Assembly (NCBI GenBank): GCA_016165875.1
Contig: JABBOT010000015.1
Span: 5,439,928-5,503,927 of the forward strand
Origin: Acanthopleura granulata
Taxonomy: Eukaryota > Mollusca > Polyplacophora > Chitonida > Chitonidae
Direction of reading: 5' to 3'
Length of the DNA stretch: 64,000 bases
The notes below the pieces were generated by a model. That model did no database searches, had not been told where the DNA came from, and was given only the letters and a program-made list of their open reading frames with translations. Positions 4,465 through 45,000 of the stretch are shown here, in pieces. Numbering within the stretch: the stretch's first letter is position 1; every line of letters starts with the position of its first letter. The translations under genes were made by a program, and so were the position numbers.

Positions 4465-4735
4465 GCAGGATTCGGTGGCTCAATCTGTTAGCCTAATGAC
4501 CTAGAAGCCTCTCACCAGTGCGGTCGCTGTGAATTCAAATCCAGCTCATGCTGGCTCCCTCTCCGATCGTACGTGGGAAGATCTGCCAGCAACCTGCAGA
4601 TGGCCGTGGGTTTCCCCAGAGCTCTGCCCGATTTCCTCCCACCATAATCCTGTTCACCATCGCATAAGTGAAATATTTTTGAGTACGGCGTAAAACATGA
4701 ATCAAAGAAGTAAAGGAATAAATAAATAAATAACT
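4465..4735 (+). repeat. Full-length tRNA-derived SINE (family 1)
   Basis: The tRNA-like head (GGTGGCTCAATCTGTTAGCC, then a B-box-like AATTCAAATCC) is followed by the family body (CTCATGCTGGCTCCCTCTCC, GGCCGTGGGTTTCC, TTTCCTCCCACCATAAT) and ends in AATAAATAAATAAATAA. TGACTGAAA flanks it at 4456-4464 and 4736-4744, a probable target-site duplication. It faces an inverted copy at 4974-5259. Confidence 0.85.
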
Positions 4736-4974: not shown

Positions 4975-5005
<31 letters not shown>

Positions 5006-5259
5006 TTTGATTGGTGCTTTCGCCGTACTCAACAATATTTCACTTATACGACGGCGGTCAGCATTACGGTGGGGGGAAACCGGGCAGAGCCCGGTGAAAA
5101 CCCAGAACCATCCGCAGGTTGCTGGCAGATCTTCCCACGTACGGCCGGAGAGGAAGCCAGCATGGGCTGGACTTGAACTCGCAGCGACCACATTGGTGGG
5201 AGGCTTTCTGGGTCATTGCGCTGCGATTGCGCGCTAACCGACTCAGCCACGAAGGCCCC
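4974..5259 (-). repeat. Full-length SINE (family 1) with 13-bp target-site duplication
   Basis: Read on the - strand, this has a GGGGCCTTCGTGGCTGAGTC-type tRNA head, the conserved body and an (AAAT)n tail, which appears as TTTATTTATTT at the left. GAGGTACTTAATA occurs at 4961-4973 and again at 5260-5272, a perfect target-site duplication. Two short open frames on each strand are created by this element and are not genes. Confidence 0.92.
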
Positions 5260-5272
5260 GAGGTACTTAATA

Positions 5273-6730: not shown

Positions 6731-6776
6731 ATGGGTTTCGAAGTGTGCGGGCCGAACGAAGTGATGGTAGTTTCAG
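6731..6776 (+). CDS. Flotillin exon 1
   Basis: This exon encodes residues 1-16 ([16 protein letters not shown]) with the final Gly codon split, so the intron is phase 1. The donor is G|GTAGAC. The CGPNE.MVVSG block is the diagnostic flotillin N-terminus. The start is the only ATG that opens this block, in a good initiation context. Confidence 0.95.
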
Positions 6777-9700
6777 GTAGACACATCTCTGATCTTTCAT
6801 TTTCTATAAAATTCGTGCAGATTCAATTCTCTGGTGAGCGTTGGTTTGCGTAGTTTTTTACCCCCGGCCAACGTCGGTCGCTGGCTTCGGCGACATTGAT
6901 AAACAACCCAGCGATTGCAAAATGCTTCACCTTGGTGTGCCATGCTTTCAAAATGCCAACTGTACTGTTCGTTTGGCTTCATTAAAGCAGCCCTGAGTAG
7001 CAGGTGTAGCGTAGTTACTGTTTTATGTTGTGTTCTGTCAATAACGCCCACCATTTGTTGTGTGCGCTTGGTGCGTTTTGTCTGCAAGCCGACTACAGGG
7101 TGGTCATTAGCATTACATATGTAAACAGTCTACTTGTACCTCAACCTGTAGCCTGTTCATGACAAGCTATATGTAAAACATCAACATGTACAACTAGAAT
7201 TTAAGAGTTAAATGCTATTCCGTGCCTTTTTACGTTGAAAAGCATTTACGATGTATGCACTGTTTAACACGTTAACACCTGCATATTCAAAAAGTAGGTC
7301 AGTTTTCTTTCCTGTCAAATTGTGTACATCATACTGGCATGTGTGTGTAAGCATGCGTATCTAGTAGAGCGAATACATTTATACCCAGTGGTGGGTCACG
7401 TATTTATCAGCTAAGTGCTGAAGTAGAGTGTCACATGCCTATTCATGCCTTTGTTTTCTTTTTTCTATCATCTTGCTTCTAGTTTTCACATCCTTTTTTT
7501 TTCTATGTTCTTGCTTTTGTTCTTTTTTTCTGTTTCCCACTTACTTCCATAGCCAAAAAAAAACAAATATAAAAGTCCTGATATATAACTTAATCCATGT
7601 AATCAAAATTACTACATTAGAGAATTCTACCACTAAATGAAGTGAATTGTTTTTTGGTTACATCTTAGCAACGACATAAATTTTATTTATATAAATTCAT
7701 CATAGTTGTGACGAAAATTTTTTGACTAGTGTTTCATATATCTTCAACAAGAAGCAACATTTCAGAAGCCTCACATGTTCACGCAAACCGAGATGAGGCA
7801 AGGTAGATATTTTCGCAAGCAGATGTGGTGATAGGCCTGCACTGAATATCTGTTTATAAAAGTTTGTGGCTCCATTCTGTGTTTGTATGCATCAAATTTT
7901 TAAGAGTAAAATGTGTGTTTTTGAATGAATGATAGCCAGGAAAGTAATGATTCTGTTTGACAAGTACCCTGACTCCTGCAGCATATGATAATGACATGCA
8001 CACAGTCAAGTTCATGCAGACCCATGCACATCACATTACTCTCTGCTTTGCCCGAAGAAAGTTTCTGTAACTTTGCTTTTCATGTTGAACACTAGTTTGC
8101 TGTGGCTATTTAGGTCTGTCGCCACCTTAAGTCAGGAATGTCAAAGGTTATATTATTTGTTGTGTATTTTTTTTTTTAAGTCAAGATGTTTTCATGTTAC
8201 TTTACTAAAGGCTGTGGTTCACTTTTGGCACTCTTGTTTCCTTCCTTTACTGGATATACATGGACTTGACGAGTCATAGAACTGTCAGAAAATTCTTGAA
8301 AACAGTGTCGGAAACTGTTCAAGTACATAAATAAATTTATATAACTTATAAAACCCTATTTGAAATCCCTTCATGCATTGCAATTTATATCCGTGCAAGC
8401 TGTAACAACATCATTATGTGAAAACTGTGTTACTTTTTAATTTAGGCCAAATTATACAGCTATTTTATTTGATTTTGGAGACTGAACTGCTTTGATTGCG
8501 TGAGACAAATTGAGTCATTCACAAAAAGAAAAAAATATAATTTTTCAGTCTGCACAGAGTAAATAATGCCCTCAGAATAGATGCTTGAATGAGCATCTTA
8601 GAAACATGGGAAAAGGTTGAAGAATAACAGTACATGTTCGTATAGCAACACTGCATGGCCCATCATTCCACTTTCACGGTTTTTGTATTTGTTTGTTCAC
8701 AGGATGCTGCCACAAAGTACCTCTTTTAGTTCCTGGAGGCCGCGTTTTCGTATGGCCAGTTATCCAAAAACTTCAAAGGTATGATTCTTGGTTGAATGTT
8801 TATAACCAACATGAAAGTGAACGGAATAACGCTTCGATTCTAATATGTGTGCACATACAGCATTATATCTAACAATTTCCAGGGTTTTCCAGGTTAAAAC
8901 AGTTTTCAATACATATTTGATATAATGTAATTGGATGATGTTATTGTTTTTAATTTTTTGTTTTCGAATGATTTGGAAGTATGAAACAGAACATGTGTCC
9001 CTACAAGTGAGGGAACTGTGTAGTTCATAGAAAATATTTACCACCTTATAAATACTATTTTGATGAAATGTGTTACTGAAGTTACTGAATGATTTCTTGT
9101 TAGGAGAGTAATCAGAATTCTTCTTACAGCTTTCATTATTATTATAGATGTCTTATACATGTACATGTTATGTTGTTGAGGGGTATAAATGCCTAGTCAG
9201 CACTTGTAGTTGTTTACAAGTAGTTGTCTTTGGAAGGGCCATCCTTATAAAATTGTTTGTTTGGAGTAACCAATTATGATGAAATGATGTTTAGTTTTTC
9301 ATTCTGGCCAATGAAAGATAGACGTTTTTTTAGTTAAGAAATCAGCGTTGAAAGATGTGCTTGTCCCAAACTCAATAGGACTTCAGAGTCGGACTCTATG
9401 TGGAGGGTCTGTTGGGTTACCCCAAACAAACATATTTTTAATGATGGCCAAACAATGGAACTACATGTATATAAGCCAGGGATTTTTTTGGCCAACTTCT
9501 TTTTTGAAATTCAGTTTGAACAAATCAAAAAACTCAATATTTTTTTGTCACCAGTGTACATCAGAAACTCTATATTTCATGAAAACTCAACACAAGATTT
9601 GTCTGTAACTCAATTTTGTGATATTTTTTTTGGTTACCACAATGAGAAGTTGGCTAGAAAAACCACAGAACAACATAGATGGCCCACTGCAGGAAAGCTT

Positions 9701-12700
9701 CAGAAAGAGTTTAGCTTTAGCGATCATTCTATCATGAAAGAACATAGTTTAGCGTAGCATACTCATTTTAATAATGAATGGAGGAATAATGTAAATTTAT
9801 GTCACTGTTCTTGTGCTCCTGTATTTGATAGTAATGTGTATGTACTGTATGCAACAGGATGAACCTAAACACTATGACTCTAGCTATAGAGAGCTCCAAG
9901 GTTTACACACGTCAGGGCGTGTCCATCTCCGTGACTGGCATTGCCCAAGTAAGTTGTAGACGAATCAGTGGTTGTTTAGCGTTGATGGCTCCTCCCACTT
10001 CCCCACTCCCTGGTTATGTAGTTGTTTGTATGGCTCATGGTGTTTGTCTTATTACCCGGGTGTATTTGGATCCCACAGTAGTATCTGCAGTGACTGAAAT
10101 AGCAGTGTTCTGTTATTTGGTTATATTTTTGTTGTTTTTACCAAATAACTGTTGTTTTATGTAATTGTTGTGTTTTTCATGTTATTAGTAACTGTTTGTT
10201 TTGGTGTTGAGTTACTAGTAACTGATTCATCATTGTTGTGTCCAAAAAACATAGGTGACAAGGCCATATTAAAGAGTTGAGCACAGTCATGGCACATGCA
10301 GGTCTTCATAAGGCTGAAATTCTAATTGTCCCCCCATCCCTCATTGCATTTAGCTTTAGGAAGCTGCGTTGTTTGCATATCAATGTAACAAATCCACTTG
10401 CCAGTTATATTCAAAAGCACAAACAAGTCGACTGTTTCAACACATATGACTATTTGCACAGTTAATTTATAAATGTAGCCTGTGGGTGAAATTGTTTATA
10501 TACATGAATATGATGGTTTCAATTTAAAAAATGTGCAGTTATTTTCATTTGTCAGGGGTGCTGTGTAATATTTTTTATGATAACGTAAAACAGGTTTCGC
10601 AAATTTATGGTAAAATGGTATGGTAACCTTTTTTGGTTGCACAAATCACTATTATGGAAACCTAAGGTAACCTGTATGGCAGCCTATAGTGGAAATGTAC
10701 TGACTAAGACAGAATAAATGTTCTGAAATCGGAATGTTCTGAAATCGGAATGAAAAAATTAAGTTGATATTTTTCAAACTTAGAAAGCGCTGCATTAGTT
10801 GCATGTAAGTACAAAAAATCAATACAGTCCCTACTACAACTTTCATCTCAACATTATTTCTGTCCCCCTGTCGGCCTGTCGGTAGTGTTCTGGTCAGAGG
10901 TTTTCTTTTGAACCAGACACTTGTGCCTGGCTCCCATTTCTGCTTTGTCAAGTAGGTTTCCACACATTTTATATCAGGTTATCCGTATAAAGTGACTCTA
11001 GTCAATCTAGATGGACTCAAGGTGTTGTTTTAAAATTCTGACATTCATGGCAACAGTGAGTCCATCATCCGTAGTAAAAGAAAATCATCGCAGATCTCCG
11101 AAGTCGATGGCACTTTAACTCACCTTTTTTACCCATGTGTATGTCATTTTCTGGTTGAATCTCGAATTCTACTTCCTTAATTTTCTAACTTTAGTGAAGA
11201 AGCTAATTACGTGGCCATGAGAACTTCAAATGTACCAAAAGGTGCACTATTGGCAGCCATTTTGAAAAGTCTCGTATTCTGCTCTTGGTCCTAAAATGTA
11301 AAGGAGTTTTGGTGTCAAAAACATCTTCAAATCTTTGACGTTTTCATTGCTGTTTGTAGTTTCCACTCCTCTGTTCATAATACAGCTGAGTAAGTCTTAA
11401 AAACACTTTCATTTTTGTCAATTTTGAATACAGGTAACTTTGTCTCACATGACCGTGGACCTCATCAAGAGCAAATCCATCTACTTCGGGTTTAGAGATC
11501 TGAGGCGATTTGTTTTTTTTTTTGTAAGGGTGAAGGACTCGGGTTTGGATGGATTTTAAGACAACACTCTAAGTCCCTCTAGATGGACTAAACCTGACTC
11601 CAACTTGACAAGAACGGGAATGTTTAACAGCAATATAAGCATGTTTGACCACAATCTCTCATAAGTCTGTCAAATTGAACCCCCTGTCTACCAGGTCTTG
11701 AGGAACTGCGATTCACAGGCAAATTCCTAGGACTCGAATTTCCCTGAAGTCCTCCGCCTCATTCAAAAATTCTTTCACATAATTAGCTTATGTTTGATAT
11801 TTGCATATTTCCGGAAGACAGTTTTCTTCACTTGTTCTCACTTCCTTAGCAAAGTAAGGCCCACCGCTACTTTGCAACAGCAGGAACCCATCATCAAGCC
11901 GGAAGTGTGTCACCAGACACTCGTTCTTTGTCGATGTATATTTAATATCCTAGCAAGGTATGAGGCCTTTGTAGTAAGGGACTGGATAGGGTAAGGGACG
12001 GCTGCTTGGCTTGGTCCAGCCCATCAACTGCTTTCATACCACCACCACGACAACAGTGATTCTCCCCTTGGTTTTCTTTAACATTGTTAAAAAGTTATGA
12101 CAAATGATTTTGTTTCTATGGTAACCGATTACAGGTCTCCTAAGCTCAGTTTTGTGAAATCTTTAGGTGAACCTTTTTTGCCATGACGTAGCATCCCTGT
12201 TTGTTGTTTGTTGTATCTGTCATCACATGGATTCACTTTTGAGTCAACTTATAATTAAATGTTGATTGTGCCCGAACAGGCTGTTGAAGTGATCTTTGAT
12301 GATTGTCGGGAGTGCCTGTACTCAAAGCCGTCCAATCTTTGCTTCAAATGAGGTTATGTGTGTGAAACATTCACATCTGTGATTCGCTCAAACACCACCT
12401 GAGTCATCTCTGTCCAGCGACATGCCGCAGATGGTAGAGGTGGTAAATGGTGCTGTCATCTTCTCACCTTCAAGTCAGGGAAATGTTCCTGAGTAAAGCC
12501 TGGAGGCAGGCCTGGGATTTTTCCTCCAGTTGGCTGATTCCAGACTTTTCCTTTCAAATTTGAACAGAAAAAGCAAGTGATTTTGTGAGAACATGTGGTT
12601 GCTGATGTAAATTGGGGGTAGGTTATGGTATGTTCAGACTTTCTTTGCTAACTTCAAACTTTTTTCTGACCATGAATTCCCATGCCTGCATGAAGGTCAA

Positions 12701-15700
12701 GTACATCGATTGGCTGAAGTAAGGAACTGTTACGGTGTAAAACAGTACTCATCTGTAATAGTTATTACACAAGGCAAGAATAACTGGTATTACAGATTAC
12801 ATAAGACTGCGTTTGCAGTTAAAATGTATAGGTATAAAAGGTATATACTGGATCATCAGAAGACAACATGTATCAAACCCCCCTTGATTAAAAACATGCT
12901 CCATTACGATACTTATGACACAGTCATGGATTTGTCGCCCAGATTTTTCGCGAAGTTGTCGCTGCACTGATTTGTGTTATTCTTTTGAAAAGTTTAGGTA
13001 CAGAAAACTTTCAGATTTCCAGCTTGGTTAGTTAAACTATTGAATAAAAACCATGCTATGACTCTTTCTGGCCATGAACAAAGTGCTGTATATATGTATG
13101 CTCTTATGTTCTGTCCTGTAATAAGCCAAACAGTGACATAGCTGAAATAGCATTCATTCGGACGCTAAGTCACACGTTTGGATGCATATGTGCTCCTAAA
13201 ACGCTTTGTTAGACAATGATGTGTTTATACTGTGAAATGAAACCTTTATTATGGGCAACTTCAGGGGATTTTCTGGCCAGTTTCTTTTTAGAAACCCAAG
13301 AGAAACTCTGTGTTTTTCTCAATCTCCCAAGACTGGATTTAACCCTCCTCAATAATATTTTCTTTAAGACCTTCAACATTAAACCTTTTTGACTGTTCCA
13401 TGGAAGCAGATATGTCGGATGATATGGTTTTTCTATCCAGGTACTCTTGCAATATCCACACCCAGTGCTCTTTCTGAATTCTTTCAGTTTGATCTTGAAG
13501 AACATGTTGCAGATGGAGGGCATCAACGCACTTGCCAAGCTTATAGCTCTAAACATGAAGCAGTTCTCTCCCTTGTTCATGGGCGGACAAGCTCCTTAAA
13601 GTCCAACTGCTGACATGACTGATATAACATTTCATGGATCTGGTAATGTTGTCTCTTTCAGAATAAGCCTGAATGTTATGGACTTGGTTGTTGAGAGCCC
13701 CTTAGTTTACACGGCTCTAGGGGTTCCCATATCAGTCAATGGTATTTCCCAGGTGAGATTCCCTTGGGTTGGACTGCTGTGGGTTCTTGCTTATCTGACA
13801 TAAGCCTCAGGTGGAGGTTTACAGTAAAAAGTGCATGTGTACATGTTCAGTATGTACCTGGGAAAATTGGGCACTGCTGATAATTCCTAACAAAGACTGT
13901 ATGGTGTACCTGAGAAAATTGGACACTGCTGATAATTCCCAACAAAGACAGAAAATTGGGCACTGCTGATAATTCCTAACAAAGACTGTATGGTGTACCT
14001 GAGAAAATTGGGCACTGCTGATAATTCCTAACAAAGACGGTATGTAGTACCTGGGAAAATTGGGCACTGCTGATAATTCCTAACAAAGACTGTATGGTGT
14101 ACCTGAGAAAATTGGGCACTGCTGATAATTCCTAACAAAGACTGTATGGTGTACCTGAGAAAATTGGACACTGCTGATAATTCCTTACAAAGACTGAGAA
14201 AATTGGACACTGCTGATAATTCCTAACAAAGACTGTATGTAGTACCTGAGAAAATTGGACACTGCTGATAATTCCTTACAAAGACTATGTAGCACCTGTG
14301 AATATCTCCACACGGAACCATTTCCAGTCAGGTGTCAGACTGTCTGCAAACATTCAGAAACTTATCCTATGTGGATTGTTACAGACTTCAGGTAATTCTT
14401 CACAGTGGTAATAGTTTTATACATTTTATTTTTGCTGAAGCTATCATCAATCAGTTACGACCAGGTGTCAGTAATTGTTATGATATGTACATAGATGTGT
14501 ACCATCATGGCAAACGTGATCAGCTTTCAGCCCAAATTGGGATCATAGCTTTTTTCAGTATTTCCAGTCATTTACATACCTGTAGCATCAGCAGTGGAAA
14601 CACCACAATGTACATGTAGCTTACCATACATTTACGCCGATTACTATGTCACAGTTCTGCCTTGGTCTTTCTGGGCTTATTAATCATCTCATAAATTGCA
14701 GATGGCAATAACAGTTAGAACGGCCTCCTATAGTACAATATCCAATTAAAATATCTGTGAAATTCTTACCCCGTAGGCTGTTTTCTTTCAGGGGTGTCAG
14801 TAATGTATTCTGTTGAACCATTTTATTGCTACATGAAGGTAGAGCTGCTGGTACTTTTTCGTTGCTGACTGTTTACAAGCTATATCTCTATACAAGCCAT
14901 ACATATGTTTTTTTCATTTTCCCATTATCGTCATGTATTTTGATACTTTGGTTATGGGCGTTAATTTTTTGGACTTCTTTGGACTTTTGCTACTTTTTGA
15001 CTTTTTGTGATTTTCAAGGTCAGACTTTTACTTATGGCTTCGTATTTTGATTTTCTTCCAAATTTACCCCTATTTGTGGGGAGGGGGGAATAATCTGTTC
15101 ATTACTTTTTAGGTACAGCTCTTAGGGTACAGTTTAAGACTTTTGTAAATCCTACCTGATGAAAATCTGAGTGGCTGACTTGACTTTACAGAATTCACCT
15201 CAATGTTATTACCCTTCAAATAAGCAGCTGCCGCATGTACACCCAATTGGGGGTACAGTTGTCAATCACTGGCATCTCACGGGTGGGTGGCCAACCGATC
15301 TCTGCGGCCTGGGCACTTGGAGCTCTTCTCACTTTCACCATGTATTGTTTTTATATTTTTAGGGGTCCAAGCCATCCTGGCAGGACACCACTTGAAATTG
15401 TTCGGATCATTGTTATTATTATTTTTGATCCGCTGGTAAAGTTGCAGTATCTCCCAAACTACTGAGGGGAGAGAATCCAACCTGGGCAGTATTGATAATG
15501 AACACATGAAGCAACTTTTGATGGTTTGTGTCCATTGTCCAGTCACGTGATTTAGAGGCCATTTTGAATTTCATTGTTAAGCTTAAAAAATCTTCTCCTC
15601 AAAGAAGGACAATGTAGTCAGGAGGAAATCCCATTTGCTGTTTCTAGGTGGATGACCCTACTCAGTTTCCCCTGTGTGTTAAATTTGATATGCAAATTAC

Positions 15701-18700
15701 GCTGTAGCTGACCTCGGAAGCTATGTGAAATTTATGTCACCTCTAAATACTGTATAAAATGATTAATCAAACATACTGTCTGGTGCTCCTTGTTGTCAAG
15801 ATTACAGATATGCAAGAATTATTTTGGTACATTGTATAGTTTTCAAGTTATCACCAGAAAAACAACCAAAATTTTTCAAAACCCTCTGATTTGAATAACA
15901 CTGGAGCTTCATGTGAAATGACAAGATCTCTTTACCTGGGTTAAGTCAATGGCATAAAGAGAAAGCCTTGTCTGGTTATTCCCAGTATCTATCAACCTAG
16001 AGGAGATCCTTTAAGGCTTAAATCACCTCAGTTTCTGTCATGGAAGCGCCTCTAAACCTTAGGACAATGTATTCTTACTGTCTTTCGCTGTTGACTATGA
16101 ACCCAAGATCAAAGCTGCATTTCGTGTGTGCTGTTCTGAAGTATTAGAGATTATGTATATGACAGTTGGCAGTTTAAGATTCAAAGCCAGTTGATTTAGT
16201 TTCCGTTCTGTTATGCTTTTTCTCCGTTTTCCTGCTTTTGTTATTACTATTACAGTGTTGGCATGTGGATCTTCATGGCCTAACCCCAGGATTGATGTCC
16301 TCCATATCTGTATTTATTAATAGGGGTTGACATATGAATTCAATCACCGCAGTTTACTGCTGAAACAGGAGGAAATAGCAGTCTCAGGTTCAATTCCAGT
16401 GTATTTCTCTTCAGTTGTATTTCGGCCAAGTACCCAACCTAATGAGAAAGGTGCAACACAGAAGCAGAGCCCAACAGTTCGGGTGAAAGCCGGACGGCAG
16501 GTGGCCGAGTTGCGTCATTAGTGTTCAGTGGGACGTGCCATGGCGTTGTAGTGTAGTGGAAACGCCATGTGATTACTTGGCTACACCGGTCGGTAACTTG
16601 ACTGCCTGTGGTAGCTTACGGTGTATGTAGTGAAAAGATTTACATCATGTAAGCCGACAGGGATGCATTTAACAGTTCCTAATTGCATTTAGGCCAACCT
16701 TGCTGCAGTCAAGGGCTTGTGTAGTCATTAAAGTGGTGGAAATAAAGGATAATGTGGAAGTTAATTATCAGACAGCAGGGATTTATTTGACCTGACCTCT
16801 TGGGTTACTGCCTAGGAATGCGTAACGGACAGGTACCTTGCCTGTCACATTTACAACCTGTGCAACAAATTTCCAGGCAATGAACAAGTCACACAGGAAG
16901 TACCGTTCGCGGTTGGAAAACATGAAATTGTTGTAAGTCGAGAAGATTAAATAATCACATTTGTCACACAAAATATATCATCTAAATGATACACACAAAT
17001 TAGAGCATAGAGGCAAAAGTGTGTGAAAATAAGGCTTTTACAGGTACAAGTGTTCTTACAAGAGCGAAACAACAGTACCATGGTAAGGACTTAGTTGCAA
17101 GATTTTGTTAGGGAAATGTCTTCAGTCTTACAGTATATCACAATATGATATTCTAGTGCAATGCATTCTCTTTAAACTAATGTCATGAGCTGGGGAGGAA
17201 AGGTGGGAAATAAAATGCTGCGGGATCACCCATTAAGGATACAATAATAGATAGGCACTTTGTGCGTGGAGAAGACTAACGAATTGTATTGGAAGACAAC
17301 TGGTCACTAGTTACAAGAAGAATAAAATTAGAGCAATAGACCTATTTCACAGCCCTTGGGCTCTGGTTATAAAATGTTGTCACGATACAAGAGCTTCCAG
17401 GCTACCAATAAAACCTTGAAATATGGATTTTCAGTTTACCAGCCTAAGGTGAATTGCATCACTTTTTATGATTCTAAGTTAAATGTCAAAGACACGGTCA
17501 CAGCAATGTTGAGATCTTTATGGAACTCTTCTGTGTGCACAGGTTTAATCGCTCTTGCATGCAGCAAAACATGCATTTTCAAGTCTACCTCAGCTGCTAC
17601 TGAACAAGTTTCAAAGGTATTTTTATCATTAGAAACTACTACAAAGGTGTGGCAGAGATCACAGGCTTTCATTCAGGTGGGAAATGAAGATGGCCGAGCT
17701 CAAAATGTGCTTCGTTGTTGTTGTACCCAACACGCGTAACTGCCTTCATTAGTTGCAAGGGCTGCCGATATGCATAAAAATAAAGTTTTTTGCTTATCTT
17801 GGTGATTTGATGTGTATCTGGTACACAAGGTTTTTTAAAACTGATGCCTGTTTTGGAAAAAATAATGCATAATGTATGGAAATGCTCATGTTGTGTGGAG
17901 CCTGGAGAAGCAGTATTTTTGAATACATGGGCTGTATACCCACAATTGTGAAACTGCTTGGTTTGAGGTATGGAGAACTGGTAAGGGTGTTGAAATAAAT
18001 CTATGTCGAAAATTGCAGAGTGGTCATCCTTAAGGTCCCCTTTTCTGTGTCATGATTCGGAAGTTTGTTGGAAGGTTTATGGTTTGGTTCTGTCATTGAT
18101 ACATGTGTATGAGTCTTTGTGTTTTAGTGTTTTCATCTGAAAGCAGTGGGCTTCCCTTTGATCTGACAGTGTTGTCAATTCAGGTTGCTGACGTCACTTT
18201 TATGACCCATTACATTTTTTCCCCAGTAGACTGTGGTGATGTCATAAAGAAAACAAGAACTATGCAACAAAAGACGATGAATTATGAAATAACGTCAACG
18301 ATTCTGAACAATTCAGAACCAGTTTGCACAAGATGCCATCATACGAGATGAAATGAAATACGAGACCCTCATTGCAGTGGATGATTTATCAATTGCCTCT
18401 GTACAGTCAGAATAAAGTTGCTTGCTTATTTATGTACATCTATGTCTCATGATACTAAATGTATTTACCAAACAAAATTTTCATGACAAATTCCATCACA
18501 TGTAAGTAACAAAATAACATTCTGCGTTCAAGAAAGTGACCTTAGATGTAGCTGGTGGCTGTATTCTGCAAAAGTGTAGACTTGAGGAGCCTGTTTTATT
18601 TGTACCCATTCATAATGGGCCAAGTCACTAAAAGCAATTCGTCGTATGGCTGCCTATTTATCCCAGTTATGTCTCAATTTTAGAAATAGCATAATGAAAA

Positions 18701-21700
18701 TAACCAGTACATAACATCACAACTAAGGCATGGTGTGTACAGCTTTATTTACCCCACTCACCCAGAATTGTAACTTTTTCTGTAAAAATCATCAGAGTAA
18801 TTTTCTGCGGGAGTCCTTTTCAGCTGCTGAGCATGCTTTGGAGATTCACTTTTCAGTCCTACCACAGGAACCTACAATTTTTTAGATCCAGAAACTAACA
18901 GTATGGGCTTTTTTGTTTGCAGAATTTCGCTTAATACTCTGACCTTGCAAATAGAAAGCAATAACGTTTACACTCAGCTGGGAGTTCCAATTTCTGTGAC
19001 AGGCATTGCTCAGGTGAGGCCGCAGTTCCAGAGAATCTGGTGACATTAGTGTGAAGGTTAGCTGAAGGTCAAGGCTACCGTGTTTAGGGCAAGGCCATGA
19101 AATGTTGGTTGCTCTGTGGGAATTCACACACAAACTGTTTGTTTCCATCACTGTCCATGTCTTTTCTTCTCTGTCTTGTCATTGTCTGTATATATGTCAC
19201 ATTTTGTACCAAAAGGATGATTTTTCTAAACTGTATGACATTTAATGCGTGAAAAGTAAGAGGGTCTAAGTTTTAGTACGCATGTACTAACAGGAGAGGT
19301 TATTAATGTTGATCAAGCACAACTGGTTGTGGGGATTACATGAATGTAAACCATCGATAATGAGACCAGAATCCAGAAAGACCAAGAGTTACTGATGCTG
19401 CTCAAGCAAATATCTAATATTATTCACAGTTTGTGCAACTTTCAAAAACACTTCCTCGTACCGCATCTGGCACATACTCAGCAAAAGGTGAAAAGAACAA
19501 TTTGGAGAAAAAAAAGAATACTCGCTGTTATCTGTGAGAGAGTACAGGAAATGTCGTTAGACACAGTTAAAGGACTTTGTACCGTTATGTTAGAAACTTT
19601 ATGTTGATGAGTAGCGTTGTGTACAGTAAGCAGTAGTGCTCAAATCACTAAAGTAGCTCCATCAGGTGAGGTACATTTGTCTCACCCATCCCAGTGCTGC
19701 ACAGAAACGAGGCACTCAAAGCCATTCGTCATGCTTTGCACAAGCCATGAACTGTTGTATTATGTGTATTTGCTGTGGCTTTAAACTCTGCTTTGTCAGG
19801 TTGTAAGGTGACTGTGTGTATGTACATACCGTCCTTACCCACTGTCGTATACGTTATCGTGTGACCACCAGAGGGCGATGTTTGTAGCTGCTTCACGCAA
19901 GAGTCACAGAATTCAATTTTTGCCTCCGCCACCAGAGCAGGTAACCTGCGGAAATTGAACCACCAGTGAGATTGGCGACGGTTTCGTCAAAGATGCAAAT
20001 TAGTTAATAAAATGGTATCAGCCTCGCTAATACTGCATGCATGCGTGCACCTGAAATCCGAAGTTTCCTGCAAGGGTGACCAATCAGAGTGCAGGGTTCT
20101 CAACACCTCTTCTAAATGTTTTGGCGTTTATATTTCTATCCACAGACTGTCCCTTAATGTACTGACATTACAAATAGACAGCAGTAATGTTTACACACAG
20201 CTGGGCGTCCCTGTTTCTGTCACAGGTATCGCACAGGTGAGAAATGTTGCTCCCTGACCCGCAAGGTCATACAGCACAGGTCAAGGTCATGAGACATTTG
20301 ACAAGGTCACTGTGCCAGGATCAAGATCGGTGTGGTCATATGCATGGTTCTTACTATCGCAGTCTGTATTAAGTACAGTTAAAAGACACAACATAGTTAG
20401 TCATCTGATCATAGGAAAAGAAGTACTACACATATACATGTCATTGAAAGGCTGTATTATAAGTTTTTAGAACAATGTACTGCGCAGTATAGGGAATTGG
20501 ATATGGACAGAATTTTTAAAGACAAAAAAAAAAATTGAAAAATTACAAGTTCTCACCAGAGGAAAGGTACACTTGTTTCAGAATTTAAGAAAAAAATCTG
20601 TACTCAAGGGTTGTCCTGCTGCGTTGTGACAAGTTGTAAAGCAGCGATTCTGGCCGAGTGACCACCATACAACAACTTAGTAACAGTATACAAATGCCAC
20701 CATTCATACTTAAATTCATACTCCTTACTTTCTCTAATTTTCTCTGTGACTCTTCCAAGCATATAACTGTCAGTGAAGAAATCTTGAGCATGTCATTAAA
20801 AACAGCATTCCCTCATTTACTCTGAATGAATTCATTTTTTTGTGAACAGAAATATGTTCCCTTTGTTTTGTTTTTTTTTCAAGAAAACAGCACTTACAAA
20901 TCACACAAGAATTTTCAGGTTAACCAGGTCATAATTCCCCACAAAAACTCACACTTTCTCACGATATAACTCTGGGTGAATGTTTTGTTATCGGTTTATG
21001 GACTTTGGTGTTGTGTTTGACCATTCTGTGCCTTCATTTAATTTGTTTATATTTTTGTAAAGTACAGATTCGCATGCAGCTTCATTTGGTAGATGGCTTT
21101 GTGACAGTGGCCTTGGATTTGACCTTTACCTGCCTTGTACACATTTTTACTTTTGGCTTAAAGAAGAAATTGATAGTTTGTAACTTTGTTGATTGTAAGA
21201 AATATGTAGCAAACCCCCATTTTTTTAATTGTTAAATAAATAACTGTAATTTGTACTGTAAACATTTCTTTTCCAACTTTTAGATTTAATGAAAAACTAC
21301 TCATTTTGTTGAAGTAATCATGGTAAAATTTGTTGACTTTTTTTAGCGTTTTTTCCAATTGTATAGATTATATGGTTGTGTATGAAGAATGCAGTCTCTC
21401 AACATTTGAAAACTGATTTAGGTAAAAATTCAAGGACAAAGCAATGACATGCTGGCAGCAGCCTGTCAGCAATTCCTGGGGAAAACGGAGAATGAAATCC
21501 GTAAGATTGCCCAGGAGACACTGGAAGGGCATCAGAGAGCTATTATGGGAAACATGACAGTCGAGGTAAGTTAATCCCTAAACTGTCAGCTTTATGTCAG
21601 AAGCTGCCTCGTTCTAAATCTATGTTTGTTTCAGCTGTTGATTTCTATTACACATGGGTACAAGGATTACAAGAAATTTTTAATTGTAATGTGGGCCTAG

Positions 21701-24700
21701 AATTAACTTTTATAATAGAATTTATTTTGTACATTTTCTTTATTTTTGTCAAAATTCATAGAGTTTTCATCAAGATACAGTGTTTGTGCTACACTTGATA
21801 CACCCTTCCTAAATCTTTGCCAGGACATGTATAGCAATTTTGGAAGGATGAAGCGAAACCTGGAACAAGTCAGATTATGTTTGAAGAGCTACCATGTCAT
21901 AGATGTAGCGAAACAGGTTACCTCGATAAGGTGTTCATTTAATTTTCTTAATTACAACCCTGGACATAATTTGCTTAATAATTTACAAAGTATAAATGTT
22001 TTAACTATTTCATTTGATCAAGTTCACATTTTGTGTTTTCTTTGACCTTGGCTGTCTTATAATATACCTCGTCCGTTGTGCACTTCATCATGACATAACA
22101 AGCTTTGTATATTTGTCCTTGAATTTCGCATTGACAGGAGATCTACAAGGACAGGAAGAAGTTCTCCAAGGCCGTGTTTGAAGTGGCCTCTTCAGATCTG
22201 GTTAACATGGGCATCTGTGTCGTCAGCTACACGCTTAAGGATATACGCGATGAGGAGGTCAGTAATCTACCCTTGTCACCAGGTCTCCCCTCCTAAAAAT
22301 ATTTGGACCCTACTACTTCGAACAATTCATGGTGATGCAGAGTTCTGCAGAAACATAACCAGTTTTAGAGGATAATGTCAGAAAATCTTTGGACTCCAGC
22401 TGAAATAACATAATCCTGCAAATGATTGACCAGTTAAAACTGATTTTACAAGGAAGTGAAAAATAGTCAAGGCTGTTGAAGTGGTTAACATACTAGTCTT
22501 TCATTCTCTAGGACAAACAAGGTGTTGGTTCATTTTCATTTAAGTCCTTGGACTGGGAATATGTCTCTAAATATGTTCTCCCACCCTCTTTGTTCGTGTG
22601 CCTTAATGGCATTGAGCAGTTGACAATACAGATGTGGCCATTGATGTAGTCTTAAATTCATTGCACATCACCCAGTATCGGCATCTTATCAAAGATGGTT
22701 GGTTTGCCCTGGACACTCCAGTTTCTTCCTGTTAAACTGACCCTTAGTGTATCATTGGAAAATTCTTATGGCACCATAAACAAGACTTGAATAAGTCAGT
22801 AAATATCTGAGATAAGTGTTGCACTGCTTGTTTAATATTTGGGGATTCTCCAGTAACTTACCCATAGACCCTTCTCTATGCCACATGAAACGCGAATTCT
22901 TTAGCCCCAATTATAGAATGGGATTTTCAAGATCCCTCTCATTCCACTGTTCTTGTTACCTTGGAGAGCAATAAACTGCCTCGTGCAGTCTTGCATGAAG
23001 CTCATTGGAGATGACTTAGCAGCCACTAATATACATTAACATGTATATTTCAGGCATGAAAAGTTTTCCCAGTAACTTGCCAAAGATTGGTGGGTTTTTC
23101 TTCACATAGGAATGTACAGTGTAAATTAAAAAAAAAAAAGACATGTTTATCTTAAATTGTTATTACACCATATTATTGTTTTCTTCAGGGTTACTTGCGA
23201 GCCCTTGGCATGGCCCGTACCGCCCAGGTGAAGAGGGACGCTCGTATTGGTGAAGCTGAGGCGAGAAGAGACGCTGGTATCAAAGTAAGTCAGACTCTTA
23301 TCTGTGATCTTAACTCAGAAACAAGAAATTGCTGCTCCCGGCAATGAATACAGGTACAACATATTACTGTGGTCACTTGTTTCAATAGCTGATTTCTTAT
23401 TTTTAGTAAAAAGATTATATTTACTTATATGAGATATTCATTTCTTTAAGGTTTTCACCAAACATTCAAAATTGAACGGGAAAGCAAATTGAGTTTTATG
23501 TAAATATTTAATTGACTGTCACCCATTTCTTTTTGAGAGATCCATCATTTGTCATTTACGTAAAGAGTATGTAGCCAGGAGGCAATACATGTAATTCTCT
23601 GCTTTGTACCGTTTGATTAGGAAGCCCAGGCCGAGGAACAGAGGATGGCTGCCCGGTATGCCAACGACATTGAAATTGCCAAGGCCCAGCGAGACTTTGA
23701 GCTGAAGAAGGCCGTCTATGATATGGAGGTGCAGACCAAGAAAGCCATGTCAGATCTGGCTTATGAACTCCAGGTAAATCTCATTGAGAGCGGGATTGGT
23801 TTACTCTCCACCCCAGGATAACAAAGGGCTCATACACTTGGCCTTTACTTTGCCTTTTGGTACTATTCCAGATCTTGCGTTCAAACTTGAAGGCTCATTT
23901 TTTTCAGTTTTGTCTATCAAGTCCAACTGTAAGGTATTAGCACAGTAAACGAAGAGTAAAGGGTAAGACAGCTTTTTTGATCCAGTGGTCAGGCAAACAT
24001 TGCTTTTTTTTTGTGGGTATGACATTTCATTGTTTTTTCATTTTGTTTAAAGTTTTGCGAACTTTGTAGTGCAGCATCTAGTTGTGTAGAATGTAGTTCG
24101 TCATTGAGTAGCATGTAGTTTTTCCTCAAACATTGATATAATCCTTCCGGATGTTGTGTACCAGGCTGCAAAGACGAAGCAGCGAATCAAAGAGGAAGAG
24201 ATGCAGATCAAAGTGGTGGAGAGAACCCAGCAGATCCAAGTCCAAGAGCAGGAGATTGTGCGCCGTGAGCGCGAGCTCGACTCCAACATCCGCAAACCTG
24301 CCGAGGCCGAGAAGTTCCGGCTGGAGAAACTCGCTGAGGCCAACAGGTGGGTGGAAGTATTAAGGAAACTTCTTGGGGAGAAAGTTTTGATAAGCCTCTT
24401 TGGAGATATGTTTTGAGGAAACCTCTTAGAGAGTGTCTTGAAGAAACTTCCTGGAGAGATGTGTTGATCAGACCTCTTGGAGAAAGTTTGTTAAACCTGT
24501 TATGGAAAAAGGATTGAGGAAACCTCTTGGAGAGATGTTTTCAGGAAACCTTGGAGAAAGTTTTGAGGAAATTTCTGACCAAAAAAGTTTTGAGGAAACA
24601 TCCTAATGAGAAAGGCTTGAGGGAACTTCTTGGAGAAAGTTTTGAGGAAACCTCTTGGGGAGATTTTTATAAGAAAACCTTGTGTGGGGAAAGGTTTGAG

Positions 24701-27700
24701 GAAGCCTCTGGCAGAAAGCTTAAGAGCGTTGTTGAGAGCGCACAGGCATGGTGTAATGGCAAGACTCTTGAGAAGGCAGCAAAATCATTTTTAATTCTAA
24801 AGTTGACCAAATTATGGAGGAGGAGTATTTCGACTTCTGTAGCTTTAAGATGTGTTTTAAACTTAAAAAGAAATGTGACAGTGCTGTGTCTGTGATAAAC
24901 AACCAGTTCCATCAGCCTTCTGCAGTAGTGTTCTTTTGGAGTGGTCATTGGTTTGCTCTCTTTTTTCAGAACCCGAATTATTTTGGAAGCCGAAGCCGCT
25001 GCAGAATCGATCAAGGTACAGAATTAACAAATATATTCTGTCTTTGTTCTCTAGTGTCATGTCTGCTGCTGAAACTGTTTACAAGACCAAGTATTACCAC
25101 CCTGATTACACTCAGCTCTATCTCCAAATGGAGGGAAACATATGTCTTAATACAAAGATGTGAAAACTGAATTTAATATCTGATTTTATATGGTTTAGTC
25201 CTCCAAATTTAGAATATTGTCAACCATCCTATACTGTTTAGAAGCAACAAGAATGCATCAGTTTATAGATTTAGGTGTGTTTTTAAGGATTTTCTAAGTG
25301 AACACAAAGTTTAACGGAGGTGACTTGACTCCGATAATATGACATACACAGTGAGCTTTGTTAAAAATCCGCCCGTGGTTTACCCCAGGCACCCATGTTT
25401 CCTTCATCCATAATGCTGACCACAATGCTGCGATTGAAAACTTCTTCTTATTATTATTCTTTTAAGCAACACTCAAGATAGTAAACAAACAGACGTACAT
25501 GTATATGCTACGGTTAATCCCTGATGGTTTGGTGAGTCCATGACTCGTTGTTATCTGACTCGTCGTCGTTATCTGACTCGTCCGCTGGTTTCTCTCTCTC
25601 TCTACAGGTGAAGGGTGAAGCTGAAGCCTTTGCTGTGGAAGCCAAAGCCAAGGCTGAGGCTGAACAGATGGCCAAGAAAGCGGATGCCTGGAAGGATTAC
25701 CAAGATGCTGCCATGGTGGACATGGTCCTCGAATCTCTGCCTAAGGTGGGTACTACCTGGATAGGTGTTTTCATGCTGTGGGCCTTTGCAGGCTGAATCA
25801 AGTTGAATTCAGTGTTTTCACAACTTCTGAGGCACAAGTCATTTTTAGTTCACTGTTACAAATTAAGACAAGCTGTTATGGATGGGGAAGGGGAAGGAAT
25901 GGCATCGGCGTGGGTGTTTGGGTAAGCTTTTTGTGAAAGTGCCACTCTGGCCAGAATACAAATTACGTCGAAATATTACAATGATATGAAAGAAATCCTA
26001 CAGAGTAAGCCTAACACCATGTTTCAAAAAGATTTTGATGAATAACTCTATTTAACCTATATAAGTGAAGATTCCTTGAAAAACAAAATCTTCGGCGGTG
26101 TTCATTAAATTTTCCTGATGTGATGTGATAATATTCCCTGTATGACGTCGAATCAGGCAGAGGTAACGTTGAGTAAGGCATTTATCCGGGGATGACGTCA
26201 AGAACATTTGAAAGGGCAGCGTCATATGTGTATACACGTCAGCGATTGATGACGTCATGTGTTCGTGGCTGACATCACACCAGGCAAAGTGGAAGTGACA
26301 GAAATATTTTGTTTCCATATACTCTGACGAAACGTACAATATCGGTTTTAATTCGCTGCAGTATTTTCACAATTTAGGAAAGCAATTCAGACTATCACAG
26401 TCTTTGTTCTTTCACTTTGCGTTTAAAGCATAGATGTTTTGACACCAAAGTAGCTCTTTAAGGTCAGCTGCCCAGTTAATTTAAGTTAAAGCAATTTAGT
26501 CCTTGTCCTTAGGTTTGTTTGGAAATGAAGGTATGCAAATTGACTGTTATGTTGTAGCAAGACTTCCAAAAAATAGACAGTATGATTGTCTTTAAGACAT
26601 GTACAAGATCTAATAAACTTACTTACCAAAAACTTATCTACCTTTATACATCTGTGAGAGTCTTTGATGTCCTTTGAATTGGCTCTAAGGCACTCCAGTG
26701 TTTTCCACCCTTGAACCTGACCAACATCCCTCAAGTGAAATATCTGTGAATGTGACATTGAAATCTTCTGCTGTTTGTGTTCTTGTCAACCTCAGGTAGC
26801 AGCTGAGATTTCTGCACCACTGTCCAACTGTAAGAAGGTAACGATGGTGTCCAGTGGTAAGGGTGATGTGGGCGCACTCAAACTGACCGGCGAGGTAATG
26901 GCCATCATGGAGAAGCTGCCCAAGGTGGTGGAAGGGCTGACCGGTGTGGACATTCACAGGGTGAGTCAAGGTTACGAACAGTAACAGTAATACGTGTGTA
27001 AAACCATGTCACCCATGTCAGTTACCCTAATTCTTCAACCTTTTCAACCACCGCTGGAAGCTATATTTCAGTATTCCCTTGGAGAACAGTAGGGTCTAGA
27101 GAAAATAATTTTTCTAGTTTTATGAAGCTTATACCAGTGATGACACAAACAAATCATCTTTGGATTCATTTTTACAGGAATTGTGCACATAAATTACCCA
27201 TTAAAAACTGCTTTAGTGATTGAAAAGGTTTAAGATTTACGGTAGATCAGTTGCAGCCAGCAACAGTGTTCCAACTGGTCCTTGATCTTGAAAGGATTTC
27301 ATTGAATGAGGTTGTATAGTTTATTTGGGGATAAATCTTCTGTAAGCTTGGTAATTTTTATGAGTGGAAAATTCTTGAGTGCAATCGTAAAAAAACTATG
27401 AAATGAAAAAATATCTTTACTCCAGTTCTAGTTTCTCTCTTAAATTCTCGACAATTTTATGGCATGAGATGTGTTCTGTACGTGTACCTTAATGTTACAA
27501 CCACATAACTACTATGGCGACATGCTGTCTGCCATGGTAGTTAAGTGCTCGTACGTGCGTGGGAAGGTCTGTCAGCAGCCTGTGGATGGCCGTTGGTTTT
27601 CCCCAGTTTCTGCCTGGTTTCCTCTCACCACAACGCTGGCCGCGGCCGTATGAGTGGAATATTGTTGAGTACGGCGTAAATCACCAGTCAAATAAATAAG

Positions 27701-42000: not shown

Positions 42001-45000
42001 ATGAAGGTTAATATATGCGTCAATATCCACTGTGATACCATTTTAATATCTGTCTGTTTTTTGTTTTTTTTTCTCAACTGGACTCATGTTTATGTATTAC
42101 TTTCCACACATGTCAAGTTGTGGAAACATTTCACTTGATACATATACACATAATTATAGGCCATTCGGCCATGCTGGGCGATGTTTAATGCACAAATGTT
42201 AGTCAAGACACACTCAAAGTCAGTATTAGAACACAAAGTACAGCAAAGAAGTCCAGATAATTCTGCATTACAACATGTGAAAATAGCACAGGCTATCTGC
42301 ATGCACAGAACCACTTGCCAAAGCCTTGAAACAAAAGTGATAAAACTGAAATCAAACCGTAACCATTAAAATAACGATCTGGATAAGACATTTACTGATA
42401 ACAATAAAATTACTGATGTGGAATGTCCAGTGGAATATTTGCCAACAAAAATTAAAGATCACAACTGCGATAAATATCTTGAGAAACAGTTAAGAAACCT
42501 TTGGGCAAAGAAAGAAGGACTATTCTGTTCACTATCCCTCACACAAATTTTAGAGTGGCTGTGGAATGCTGTCACAAAATCCCATGCATGGTGCCTGGAT
42601 ACTTCAGGTATGATATCAGTTCTGAGACCCTTACTTCAAGGCTTCACACTAAACTGACTGGAAGGCAACCGGAGCATGAAGCACACAAAATGGCAATGAG
42701 TAATAATAGTTGCGAATTTCCACATTCACATACTTAGGTATTGTTGGTGACCCGGTCAATTGCTGTCTAACGTAACTCTTTGTGTAGTTTGTGGCTGCGT
42801 TTGCTGCAGCATGTCCAGCCGCTTGACCAGCGCTAGATTGAGCGAACCGTTTGGCGATTTCCTGAGACTGACGGCTGTTCACCGGTAAGCTGCCCACTCG
42901 GGTGAGATTTTGGCTCATGGAGTCGGACATATCGTAGCCTGATTTATTCCACGAAGGCCTGATCACAATGGGAACAGTGGAGTAGTCAAGATGCAGAAGG
43001 GTAATTATAAGTAACAGCATTCACAACAACAACAACATCAACGACACATCAACATTTGCAGCCCTACCTTAGCAAAGTCAAAGAAAAACACAACGACAGT
43101 AAAAATAAAAAGTGAAACATTCCATGATAGCTCAAAGGAAATAATACAGCACATAAGAATCGAATAATCAGCATATACTGAGGAAAACCTTAACCTAAAT
43201 AGCATTTGTAACACAGGGTCGCCACATATACATATATATCAACACAAACATTTATGGATTTTTCACGACTTTTTCATGACCAAATCAAAAAAAATTCATT
43301 ACTTTTTTGCAAAAATGATACAAACCTGAAGACCCCTCTTGTCTGTTTAAGTAATTAGTTTTATTTAATTCTTCATCACTGACATGGCAGAGCAAAAAAG
43401 TATACATGTAAACATTCAGAAAAAAAAAACGTTACTTTTTCTGAAATTTTCAAAATTGATGACTTACAACAATTCATGACTAGGAATGTTATTAGTGACT
43501 ATTCCAGATTTTTATGACTGTGGCAACCCTGAAAACACGAATACATACAAACAGCAATGCATAAAAAGAATTTGACCAACTTGTGCATGAAATTCGGAGC
43601 CATTCCAAAACATATTCAACATCAAGCCTTAAATCCAAAAACTACACTAAGGTGCAAAAAATAGAAGTTCCTCCCACAGATCTCACGAGTTAATCCACAA
43701 TACCCATGTGGCATGTGATATGCCAGAAGATTAAGTTTCCTCAAGTACCAGTACCACTTGTTAGTAACGCAAAACCACTAGCCTACACAGTACTAGCTAA
43801 CTTATTGAGAAGCTAACCATACTGGTTGATCTTGGTCAGTGCAAGAGGTCAGGGGCCGAACTACATGCAAAACATGTGAGTGCCGTACAGAACAATAAAA
43901 TGACCAGTGACCTAGTGGAGATCAGATATTTTACAGTAAATCCCAGCTGCGCTAGCTTATGTGCCACTTTCTGTCCATATGGCTGAAGCAAGCAACATTG
44001 TCTAGGGAGCCTAATCCAAAAGTGTGCATCATCCAAAAGTGTGCATCATCCAAAAGCCCACATTGTGACGACTCCAAATGGTTATCATGATTTTTTTCCT
44101 TTTTTTTTTTTAGATTTTTATTTTTACAGTGAACAAAATACAAATATATTTATTTATTTATTTGATTGGTGTTTTGCACCGTACTCAAGAACATTTCACT
44201 TATACGATGATGTGTTAGCATTATGGTGGGAGGCAACCGGGCAGAGCCCGGGGGAAACCCACGACCGTCTGCAGGTTGCTGGCATACCTTCCCACATATA
44301 GCCGGAGAGGAAGGCAGCAGGGGCTGGTCTTGAACTCACAGCGAACTCATTGGTGGGAGGCTTCGGGGTCATTGTGCTGCGATAGCGCGCTAACCAAGCC
44401 ACGGAGGCCCCAATACAAATATAAACCGAGTTTCTATGACGGACATTCTGGATCACACTGAATAAGCTGAAGAACAGTGACGTCACAGATTCTCGTTTGC
44501 TATAAAACAGACTATTTAACAATTTAACATTTCCACATTAAATAGATACAGATGTAGCAATATAAATATATTTATGTTGAACGTAGCACTACAGCAATCA
44601 GAGGATGTTAAGTCATTAAAAGGTATCAGTGACGCAACTGTGCTTCAACCTGTTCAATATGGTCCAAAAAGTATTTTGTTCACTGTAAAGGAAATGTAAA
44701 AAAACCATCATGATGACTATATTTGCACTCAGCATGACATGAGCTTTCAGATGGTGTGTACTTCATCTAAAGGTGGTCAGTTCCTTTCACGTTCAAAGAT
44801 TCAGTTAGGAGTTCATAGGAACCAATTCCTAACAGCCAATTGTATATTAAGTCAACCTTAAAATTGTTAATCAGATCAATACTACAACAACAAGAACTGG
44901 CTCAAGAAGGTCTTCAAGGAATTAAAAATGAGGTGCATGTTACCAGAAACAGTAACAAAGACCAAATGTGTACTTACGTAGGAATAAGTGGCTGAGGCAG

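What the first reader, a model, noticed from the sequence alone, without database searches (positions are those of the whole stretch)
9858..20236. Five tandem interchangeable copies of the flotillin SPFH exon 3
Seen directly: five exons (9858, 13662, 15192, 18923, 20146), each 91 nt, each with AG acceptor and GT donor, each open, and each encoding a version of the same 31-residue segment (x.LN...L...S...YT..GV..S..GI). I know of no described flotillin with an alternative-exon array. It would let one gene make five membrane scaffolds differing inside the SPFH/PHB domain.
Basis: partly seen in the sequence, partly recalled or inferred. Interest (0 to 1): 0.96.

Follow-up and report, generated by a model that had tools for sequence, protein, structure and literature searches.

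The report
Flotillin gene with five swappable exons
A gene for the membrane scaffold protein flotillin-1, probably from a chiton, carries five versions of one exon of which only one at a time keeps the reading frame open, so splicing would let this single gene build up to five different scaffolds; protein records of abalones, mussels and a lamp shell vary in the same stretch, so it is likely an old switch, and I did not find it described in print.

Summary
Five 91-nt exons (9858, 13662, 15192, 18923, 20146) lie between flotillin-1 exons 2 and 4, all open with AG/GT sites; of 32 copy subsets only the five single-copy ones keep the frame. A scan finds no sixth copy. Peptides are kept better than silent sites, and exon similarity stops at the splice sites: not an assembly error.

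The window is probably a chiton: Liolophura flotillin-1 X2 has copy a letter for letter. In 7 of 15 species groups compared, flotillin-1 records differ in this segment, with up to five versions. In the nine groups picked, all other differences fall in two more exon-sized blocks. A copy-a-like class spans chiton, gastropods and bivalves (moderate support).

Best reading: an old mutually exclusive exon array swapping a predicted beta-hairpin in the SPFH domain. Copies a, d and e look functional; b and c are divergent and uncertain. No docking/selector signal was found. No reads were available. Known kind; this member was not described in the papers searched.

The parts
6731..6776 (+). flotillin-1 coding exon 1 (ATG..., [15 protein letters not shown])
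8703..8778 (+). flotillin-1 exon 2, constitutive donor exon before the array
   Evidence: single copy in the gene by scan
9858..9948 (+). alternative exon 3a (copy a); peptide identical to that of Liolophura sinensis flotillin-1-like X2
   Evidence: class shared with gastropods and bivalves
13662..13752 (+). alternative exon 3b (copy b); carries A70S, not seen in the 126 retrieved relatives
   Evidence: private changes neutral-like under the conservative ancestor
15192..15282 (+). alternative exon 3c (copy c); most divergent, carries V56M, A70S, Q71R
18923..19013 (+). alternative exon 3d (copy d)
20146..20236 (+). alternative exon 3e (copy e), the copy closest to 3d
21422..21565 (+). flotillin-1 exon 4, constitutive acceptor exon after the array
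22138..22257 (+). flotillin-1 exon 5
23189..23284 (+). flotillin-1 exon 6 (residues 160-191); single copy here, the matching residues alternate in records of several gastropods and mussels
23621..23773 (+). flotillin-1 exon 7
24165..24346 (+). flotillin-1 exon 8
24970..25015 (+). flotillin-1 exon 9
25608..25745 (+). flotillin-1 exon 10
26796..26984 (+). flotillin-1 exon 11 with stop codon
   Evidence: start corrected there from the first trials

Best explanation
This is a single flotillin-1 gene, probably of a chiton, with five tandem versions of exon 3 of which splicing would join exactly one between exons 2 and 4, so that the gene likely makes up to five flotillin-1 proteins differing only in one 31-residue stretch of the SPFH domain. 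Shown: five open 91-nt exons with splice sites in one phase; zero, or two or more, copies break the frame; the array's peptides are kept better than neutral change would leave them; records of other lophotrochozoans differ in just this stretch. Inferred: that mutual exclusion is backed by the frame rule, with mis-spliced messages removed by nonsense-mediated decay; that splicing factors choose the copy by tissue or stage; that the swap changes a beta-hairpin at the rim of the flotillin cage, and so lipid, partner or subunit choice. Copies a, d and e are the ones I expect to be used; b and c are less sure.
For: Geometry and frame: (5 of 32 copy subsets open, all five single-copy). Full-length flotillin-1 of 426 aa whose residues 3-421 align with human flotillin-1, E 8e-179. 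Constraint: NG86 pN 0.10-0.39 against pS 0.57-0.78 for all 10 pairs. Neutral simulations reached the observed peptide identity in 0-6 of 3000 runs per pair. In a comparison of the copies with 500-nt flanks, the two pairs with an exon hit (d/e, a/d) align no further than about 5 nt beyond the exon. Relatives: 7 of 15 species groups show two to five versions of this segment. In the nine groups picked, the 339 positions outside three exon-sized blocks are identical within each group, and 10 direct pairwise comparisons from those groups show differences only in the blocks. Order: the Plakobranchus and Nucella gene models contain a copy-a-like stretch followed by a second copy or part of one. Copy a is identical to the segment of a second chiton species.
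Against: No RNA reads or junctions from this animal were available. The isoforms of relatives are database records, many automatic, whose read support I could not inspect. Copies b (A70S) and c (V56M, A70S, Q71R) depart where 126 of 126 retrieved records (several per species) have Ala70 and Gln71, and 125 of 126 have Val56. Under the most conservative ancestor, the changes private to b (1193 of 5000 neutral runs keep the peptide as well) and a (511 of 5000) are not distinguishable from neutral, and those of e (220) and c (161) only marginally so. No common docking/selector pairing was found. In 6 of the 15 species groups the listed isoforms do not differ in this segment, and the same holds for two further pairs not made into groups, Crassostrea angulata and Mytilus coruscus.
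Confidence: 0.84

Rival explanations
1. Most of the array is relic: one or two copies (for example a and d) are used in this animal, while b and c are fading duplicates whose splice sites happen to survive.
For: b and c are long branches and break residues fixed or nearly fixed in the retrieved relatives; b's private changes are spread evenly over codon positions, 7, 6, 7. No close counterpart of b or c was found in the region searches, which scored only 17 and 18 candidates.
Against: Both are still open and correctly phased with intact AG/GT. With the majority ancestor, neutral runs keep the peptide as well in 0 of 5000 for b and 7 of 5000 for c. The other members of the Liolophura cluster, where counterparts of b and c might sit, are hidden behind one representative.
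Confidence: 0.12
2. The extra copies act mainly as poison exons: including two, or none, shifts the frame and lowers flotillin-1 output, and the protein variants matter little.
For: 91 nt is 1 mod 3, and every wrong combination gives an early stop.
Against: A poison exon needs no conserved peptide, yet the peptides are conserved, and relatives list single-copy full-length isoforms for several versions.
Confidence: 0.03
3. The array is an assembly artefact or a recent tandem duplication.
For: Repeats of any kind can be misassembled; a minisatellite lies between 3b and 3c.
Against: The copies are only 49-71 of 91 nt identical, synonymous differences are high (pS 0.57-0.78), and the 500-nt flanks share only one 33-nt stretch beyond the exons, between a and b; records of relatives vary in the same stretch.
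Confidence: 0.01

Closest known systems
Tandem mutually exclusive exon arrays (Dscam1 exons 4/6/9, insect muscle myosin heavy chain, nAChR alpha6)
   Same: Homologous exons in tandem, one of which is chosen per message, swapped in one part of the protein (features mostly recalled; PMC2257972, PMC1397879 and PMC1919356 seen only as search listings with the start of the abstract).
   Different: Here the gene is an SPFH membrane scaffold, with 5 copies of a 31-residue stretch and introns of 1.1-3.7 kb; no docking/selector signal was found.
Flotillin-1 isoform records of Haliotis rufescens, Mytilus californianus, Lingula anatina
   Same: Isoforms that differ in the segment coded by this exon.
   Different: They also alternate in a second block, residues 160-191 (Haliotis, Mytilus), or in the exon-2 block (Lingula); the window has one copy of each of those exons.
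Human tandem duplicated exon substitutions (e.g. SNAP25 exon 5, U2AF1 exon 3/Ab)
   Same: An exon duplication with a swap of one homologous segment (PMC9741552, PMC2581893 and PMC5224494 seen as listings with the start of the abstract).
   Different: Two alternatives in those examples rather than five; different proteins.

Membership tests
Flotillin-1 (SPFH superfamily) | Full-length homology to flotillin-1, closer than to flotillin-2 | tested here: met
   Residues 3-421 align with human flotillin-1 chain 9l3g_A at E 8e-179 and with flotillin-2 at 1.6e-108; most named hits among the best 120 are called flotillin-1 or flotillin-1-like
Flotillin-1 (SPFH superfamily) | SPFH beta domain followed by a long helix | tested here: met
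   Predicted for the Liolophura orthologue P0001: strands to residue 157, helix 172-370; mean pLDDT 69 only. The spliced window protein itself was not folded
Tandem mutually exclusive exon array | Homologous adjacent exons, equal phase, intact splice sites | tested here: met
Tandem mutually exclusive exon array | Only one copy per message is compatible with the frame | tested here: met
   5 of 32 subsets open, all single-copy
Tandem mutually exclusive exon array | Messages really contain one and only one copy, and more than one copy is used | tested here: inconclusive
   No reads here; relatives' records show single different copies, but two gene models (Plakobranchus, Nucella) join two copies or parts
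Dscam-type RNA-structure-controlled array | A docking site that pairs with a selector beside every copy | tested here: not met
   Ungapped 16-nt pairing of two candidate docking regions with 450 nt on either side of all copies is no better than shuffles in four set-ups; single-sequence test of low power, docking sites elsewhere not tested

The most novel reading that the evidence does not exclude
Flotillin-1 of lophotrochozoans is a splicing-coded, combinatorial membrane scaffold: exon-sized cassettes (exon 2, exon 3, exon 6) in the SPFH head and hinge region are swapped independently, the exon-3 array is older than the split of chitons, snails, bivalves and brachiopods, and the rim of the 44-subunit cage is thereby retuned cell type by cell type.
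Probability: 0.4. Interest if true: 0.82.

Novelty: new member of a known kind. Interest (0 to 1): 0.66.

Why it matters
Flotillins mark membrane microdomains, and what their SPFH head recognises is, as far as I recall, unsettled. A natural series of proteins identical except for one stretch of that head, with records in molluscs and a brachiopod, would be a ready-made structure-function experiment: each isoform's lipids, partners and location can be compared directly. It would also add an SPFH scaffold to the genes with large mutually exclusive exon arrays. My paper searches (several lists capped) showed no earlier description, although database records of other species already list such isoforms.

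Tried and rejected
A simpler ungapped score gave nothing above shuffles: weakest-of-five best reached or exceeded in 55, 60, 38 and 60 of 60 shuffles, mean-of-five in 26, 10, 30 and 52 of 60.

Sixth or decayed copies, and second copies of the other exons: scan of the whole window with the peptides of exons 2, 3a-3e, 4, 5, 6, 7, 8, 10 and 11 (exons 1 and 9 were not scanned); none in the gene. The one odd hit, an exon-2-like peptide at 42567, lies far outside the gene and was not pursued.

Clade test of the copy-a class: the tree groups 12 rows at 92/83 (not starred). Holding my own 11-row set together was not rejected (p-AU 0.40), which does not prove it; the set was named after I had seen the sequences and omits Lottia, which the tree places inside. 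Only 30 columns were available.

RNA evidence from unnamed transcript-like contigs: I compared 32 such records and printed the three nearest of each; among those no two unnamed records are near-identical outside the segment yet different inside it. P0053 (longest contig 4392 bases, so probably cDNA) carries a divergent version like that of Mytilus californianus X4.

Region searches with copies b and c found no close counterparts; they scored 17 and 18 candidates only. The hidden members of the Liolophura cluster may hold them but cannot be listed.

How relatives were picked: one search found 4874 proteins and listed the best 120; searches added six. From these 126 I made 15 species groups by hand. 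Babylonia and Acanthaster records lie on different contigs and differ along the whole protein, so they speak neither way. Two further same-species pairs, Crassostrea angulata (P0029, P0078) and Mytilus coruscus (P0098, P0110), were not made groups; their segments are identical. The nine groups were picked because they vary in an exon-sized block. Other groups vary elsewhere: insertions near residue 160 in Ostrea and Crassostrea virginica, C-terminal tails in C. virginica and Centruroides. In one search positions absent in both records count as equal.

Own-genome search for a second flotillin gene: no answer.
Full report
What is there. The + strand between 6731 and 26984 holds a complete flotillin-1 gene. 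Its exons are 6731-6776, 8703-8778, then five alternatives for exon 3, then 21422-21565, 22138-22257, 23189-23284, 23621-23773, 24165-24346, 24970-25015, 25608-25745 and 26796-26984 with the stop. With any one copy of exon 3 the message encodes 426 residues; the version with copy d aligns from 3 to 421 with human flotillin-1 (9l3g_A, 9bq2_B; E 8e-179) and less well with flotillin-2.

Frame rule. 91 is 1 mod 3. I translated all 32 subsets of copies between exons 2 and 4: only the five single-copy subsets stay open to the natural stop, while skipping the array or including two to five copies runs into early stops (whose exon 11 start was still wrong but lies behind those stops). This is what a mutually exclusive array should look like. 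That faulty combinations are removed by nonsense-mediated decay is an inference.

Not chance, not artefact. A scan of the whole window in six frames finds exactly five copies. The copies score 70-128 against each other, and the best non-copy hit per query scores 25-38. Copies are 49-71 of 91 nt and 14-25 of 30 residues identical. With 500-nt flanks on either side, similarity for d/e and a/d ends within about 5 nt of the exon; a and b share one 33-nt upstream stretch; no other pair gave a hit. Such old, diverged copies are not an assembly error.

Constraint. NG86 gives pN 0.10-0.39 against pS 0.57-0.78 for all ten pairs. Neutral simulations with the observed number of changes reached the observed peptide identity in 0-6 of 3000 runs per pair. 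Taken copy by copy against a majority ancestor, 0, 0, 7, 0 and 0 of 5000 runs (a to e) keep the peptide as well. Against the most conservative ancestor the counts are 511, 1193, 161, 18 and 220 of 5000. So the array as a whole shows constraint, d does on its own, and c and e marginally. For a and b this second test is not significant, though a is identical at protein level to the segment of another chiton species. Copies b (A70S) and c (V56M, A70S, Q71R) break positions where 126 of 126 retrieved records (several per species) have Ala70 and Gln71, and 125 of 126 have Val56. They are either specialised or fading.

Whose genome. The nearest protein is flotillin-1-like X2 of Liolophura sinensis (96%; all other listed hits are at 84% or below), a chiton of the Polyplacophora. 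Outside the segment the two differ by six substitutions and in the C-terminal tail, so the window is probably a related chiton. The Liolophura cluster is listed with five member sequences and one contig, which would fit five isoforms, but only the representative can be read.

Relatives. One search listed the best 120 of 4874 hits. I compared 15 hand-made species groups with at least two listed flotillin-1 records. In 7 the records differ in this segment: Haliotis rufescens has five versions, H. cracherodii three, Lingula anatina three, Mytilus californianus three, M. trossulus two, Sinanodonta woodiana three and Bradybaena similaris two. In 6 they do not (Littorina, Biomphalaria, Ostrea, Crassostrea virginica, Centruroides, Saccostrea echinata), and in 2 (Babylonia, Acanthaster) the records come from different contigs and differ throughout. 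Two further pairs, Crassostrea angulata and Mytilus coruscus, have identical segments. In the nine groups laid out, the 339 positions outside three blocks are identical within each group (positions absent in both counted as equal). The blocks are residues 17-40, 41-71 and 160-191, which are the products of window exons 2, 3 and 6. Block 160-191 alternates in 7 of the 9 groups, independently of block 41-71: M. californianus X1, X3 and X4 and M. trossulus X3 together show all four combinations of two versions each. Block 17-40 alternates in Lingula. Groups outside these nine also vary elsewhere: insertions near residue 160 in Ostrea and C. virginica, C-terminal tails in C. virginica and Centruroides. 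The window itself has a single exon 2 and a single exon 6. Many of these records are automatic annotation; I could not see the reads behind them. One record from ENA (P0053, longest contig 4392 bases), probably a cDNA, carries a divergent version like that of M. californianus X4.

Age. The copy-a class (Met42, Arg/Lys59) groups copy a and Liolophura with Haliotis, Bradybaena, Lymnaea, Plakobranchus, Nucella and Lottia (gastropods) and Sinanodonta, Mercenaria, Dreissena and Mya (bivalves; these class names are recalled): 12 rows, support 92/83, not starred, 30 columns only. In the gene models of Plakobranchus and Nucella, which wrongly or truly join two copies or parts, the copy-a-like one comes first, as in the window. 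This suggests, without proving it, that the first duplication predates the split of chitons from snails and bivalves.

Where it sits in the protein. A predicted model of P0001 places residues 41-71 at the end of strand 37-43, strand 47-57, a turn at 58-62 and most of strand 63-74 (mean pLDDT 69, about 73-77 in this part). A review puts SPFH1 at residues 1-43 and SPFH2 at 43-160 of flotillin-1, and SUMOylation at K51 (PMC11775717, passages); the window copies have E, E, S, E, D at the matching position 52. The cage has 22 flotillin-1 and 22 flotillin-2 subunits, with the SPFH domains at the membrane-bound wide end and Tyr160 at a hinge (PMC11260169, passages). The exon-3 swap would therefore change a hairpin at the rim, and the exon-6 swap of other species the stretch that begins at the hinge. 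Effects on lipids or partners are inference.

How choice is made. I looked for a Dscam-type docking site, after exon 2 or before exon 4, pairing with selectors near every copy and found nothing above shuffles. A 30-nt element is shared 349-378 nt upstream of copy a and 368-397 nt upstream of copy b, but the first overlaps an inverted repeat and may be a mobile-element remnant. Introns of 1.1-3.7 kb argue against exclusion by crowding. Trans-acting splicing factors plus the frame rule are the likely means; this is untested.

In print. Nine searches of the paper library, read as listings and several of them capped (six of them, 5, 11, 13, 43, 44 and 49, joined flotillin with splicing or exon terms), showed no paper describing mutually exclusive or duplicated exons in a flotillin. 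A 2025 flotillin review has no occurrence of words beginning with splic, exon or isoform in its main text (PMC11775717). The library is open-licence only. PMC1891103 concerns a gene cluster inside an intron of insect flotillin-2, not alternative flotillin exons (passages).

Verdict. A real five-copy exon array with the build of a mutually exclusive one, in a gene family where I found none described; a new member of a known kind, with an evolutionary spread that makes it more than a curiosity. Proof of use of each copy in this animal is missing.

Noticed in passing
window 23189-23284 and relatives P0042/P0057, P0010/P0049, P0008/P0039, P0056/P0083, P0045/P0054: In records of several gastropods and mussels the residues of window exon 6 (160-191) alternate between two versions, independently of exon 3; the window has one copy only.
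   Followed up: partly
relatives P0006/P0012/P0025 against P0021/P0036/P0047 (Lingula anatina): The exon-2 block alternates between two versions, combined with all three exon-3 versions.
   Followed up: partly
window 9480-9509 and 13265-13294: A 30-nt element is shared about 350-400 nt upstream of copies a and b and, at up to 3 mismatches, found nowhere else in the window; the first lies in an inverted repeat (9464-9681).
   Followed up: partly
window 13853-14302: A minisatellite of about 52-nt units in the intron between copies b and c.
   Followed up: no
window 24355-24718: A degenerate 25-nt tandem array in the intron after exon 8.
   Followed up: no
window 46482-46880 (-): Dynamin GTPase effector domain (PF02212, E 4.4e-07), so a dynamin-like gene lies downstream on the other strand.
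   Followed up: partly
window 42567-42638 (+): A peptide [11 protein letters not shown] resembling the start of exon 2, far outside the gene; score 37 where the next best is 21; possibly chance.
   Followed up: no
window about 2010-2190, 4490-4700, 4990-5260, 44200-44400, 62140-62370: A dispersed repeat seen by eye in the sequence and in the translations, perhaps a SINE; not aligned or classified.
   Followed up: no
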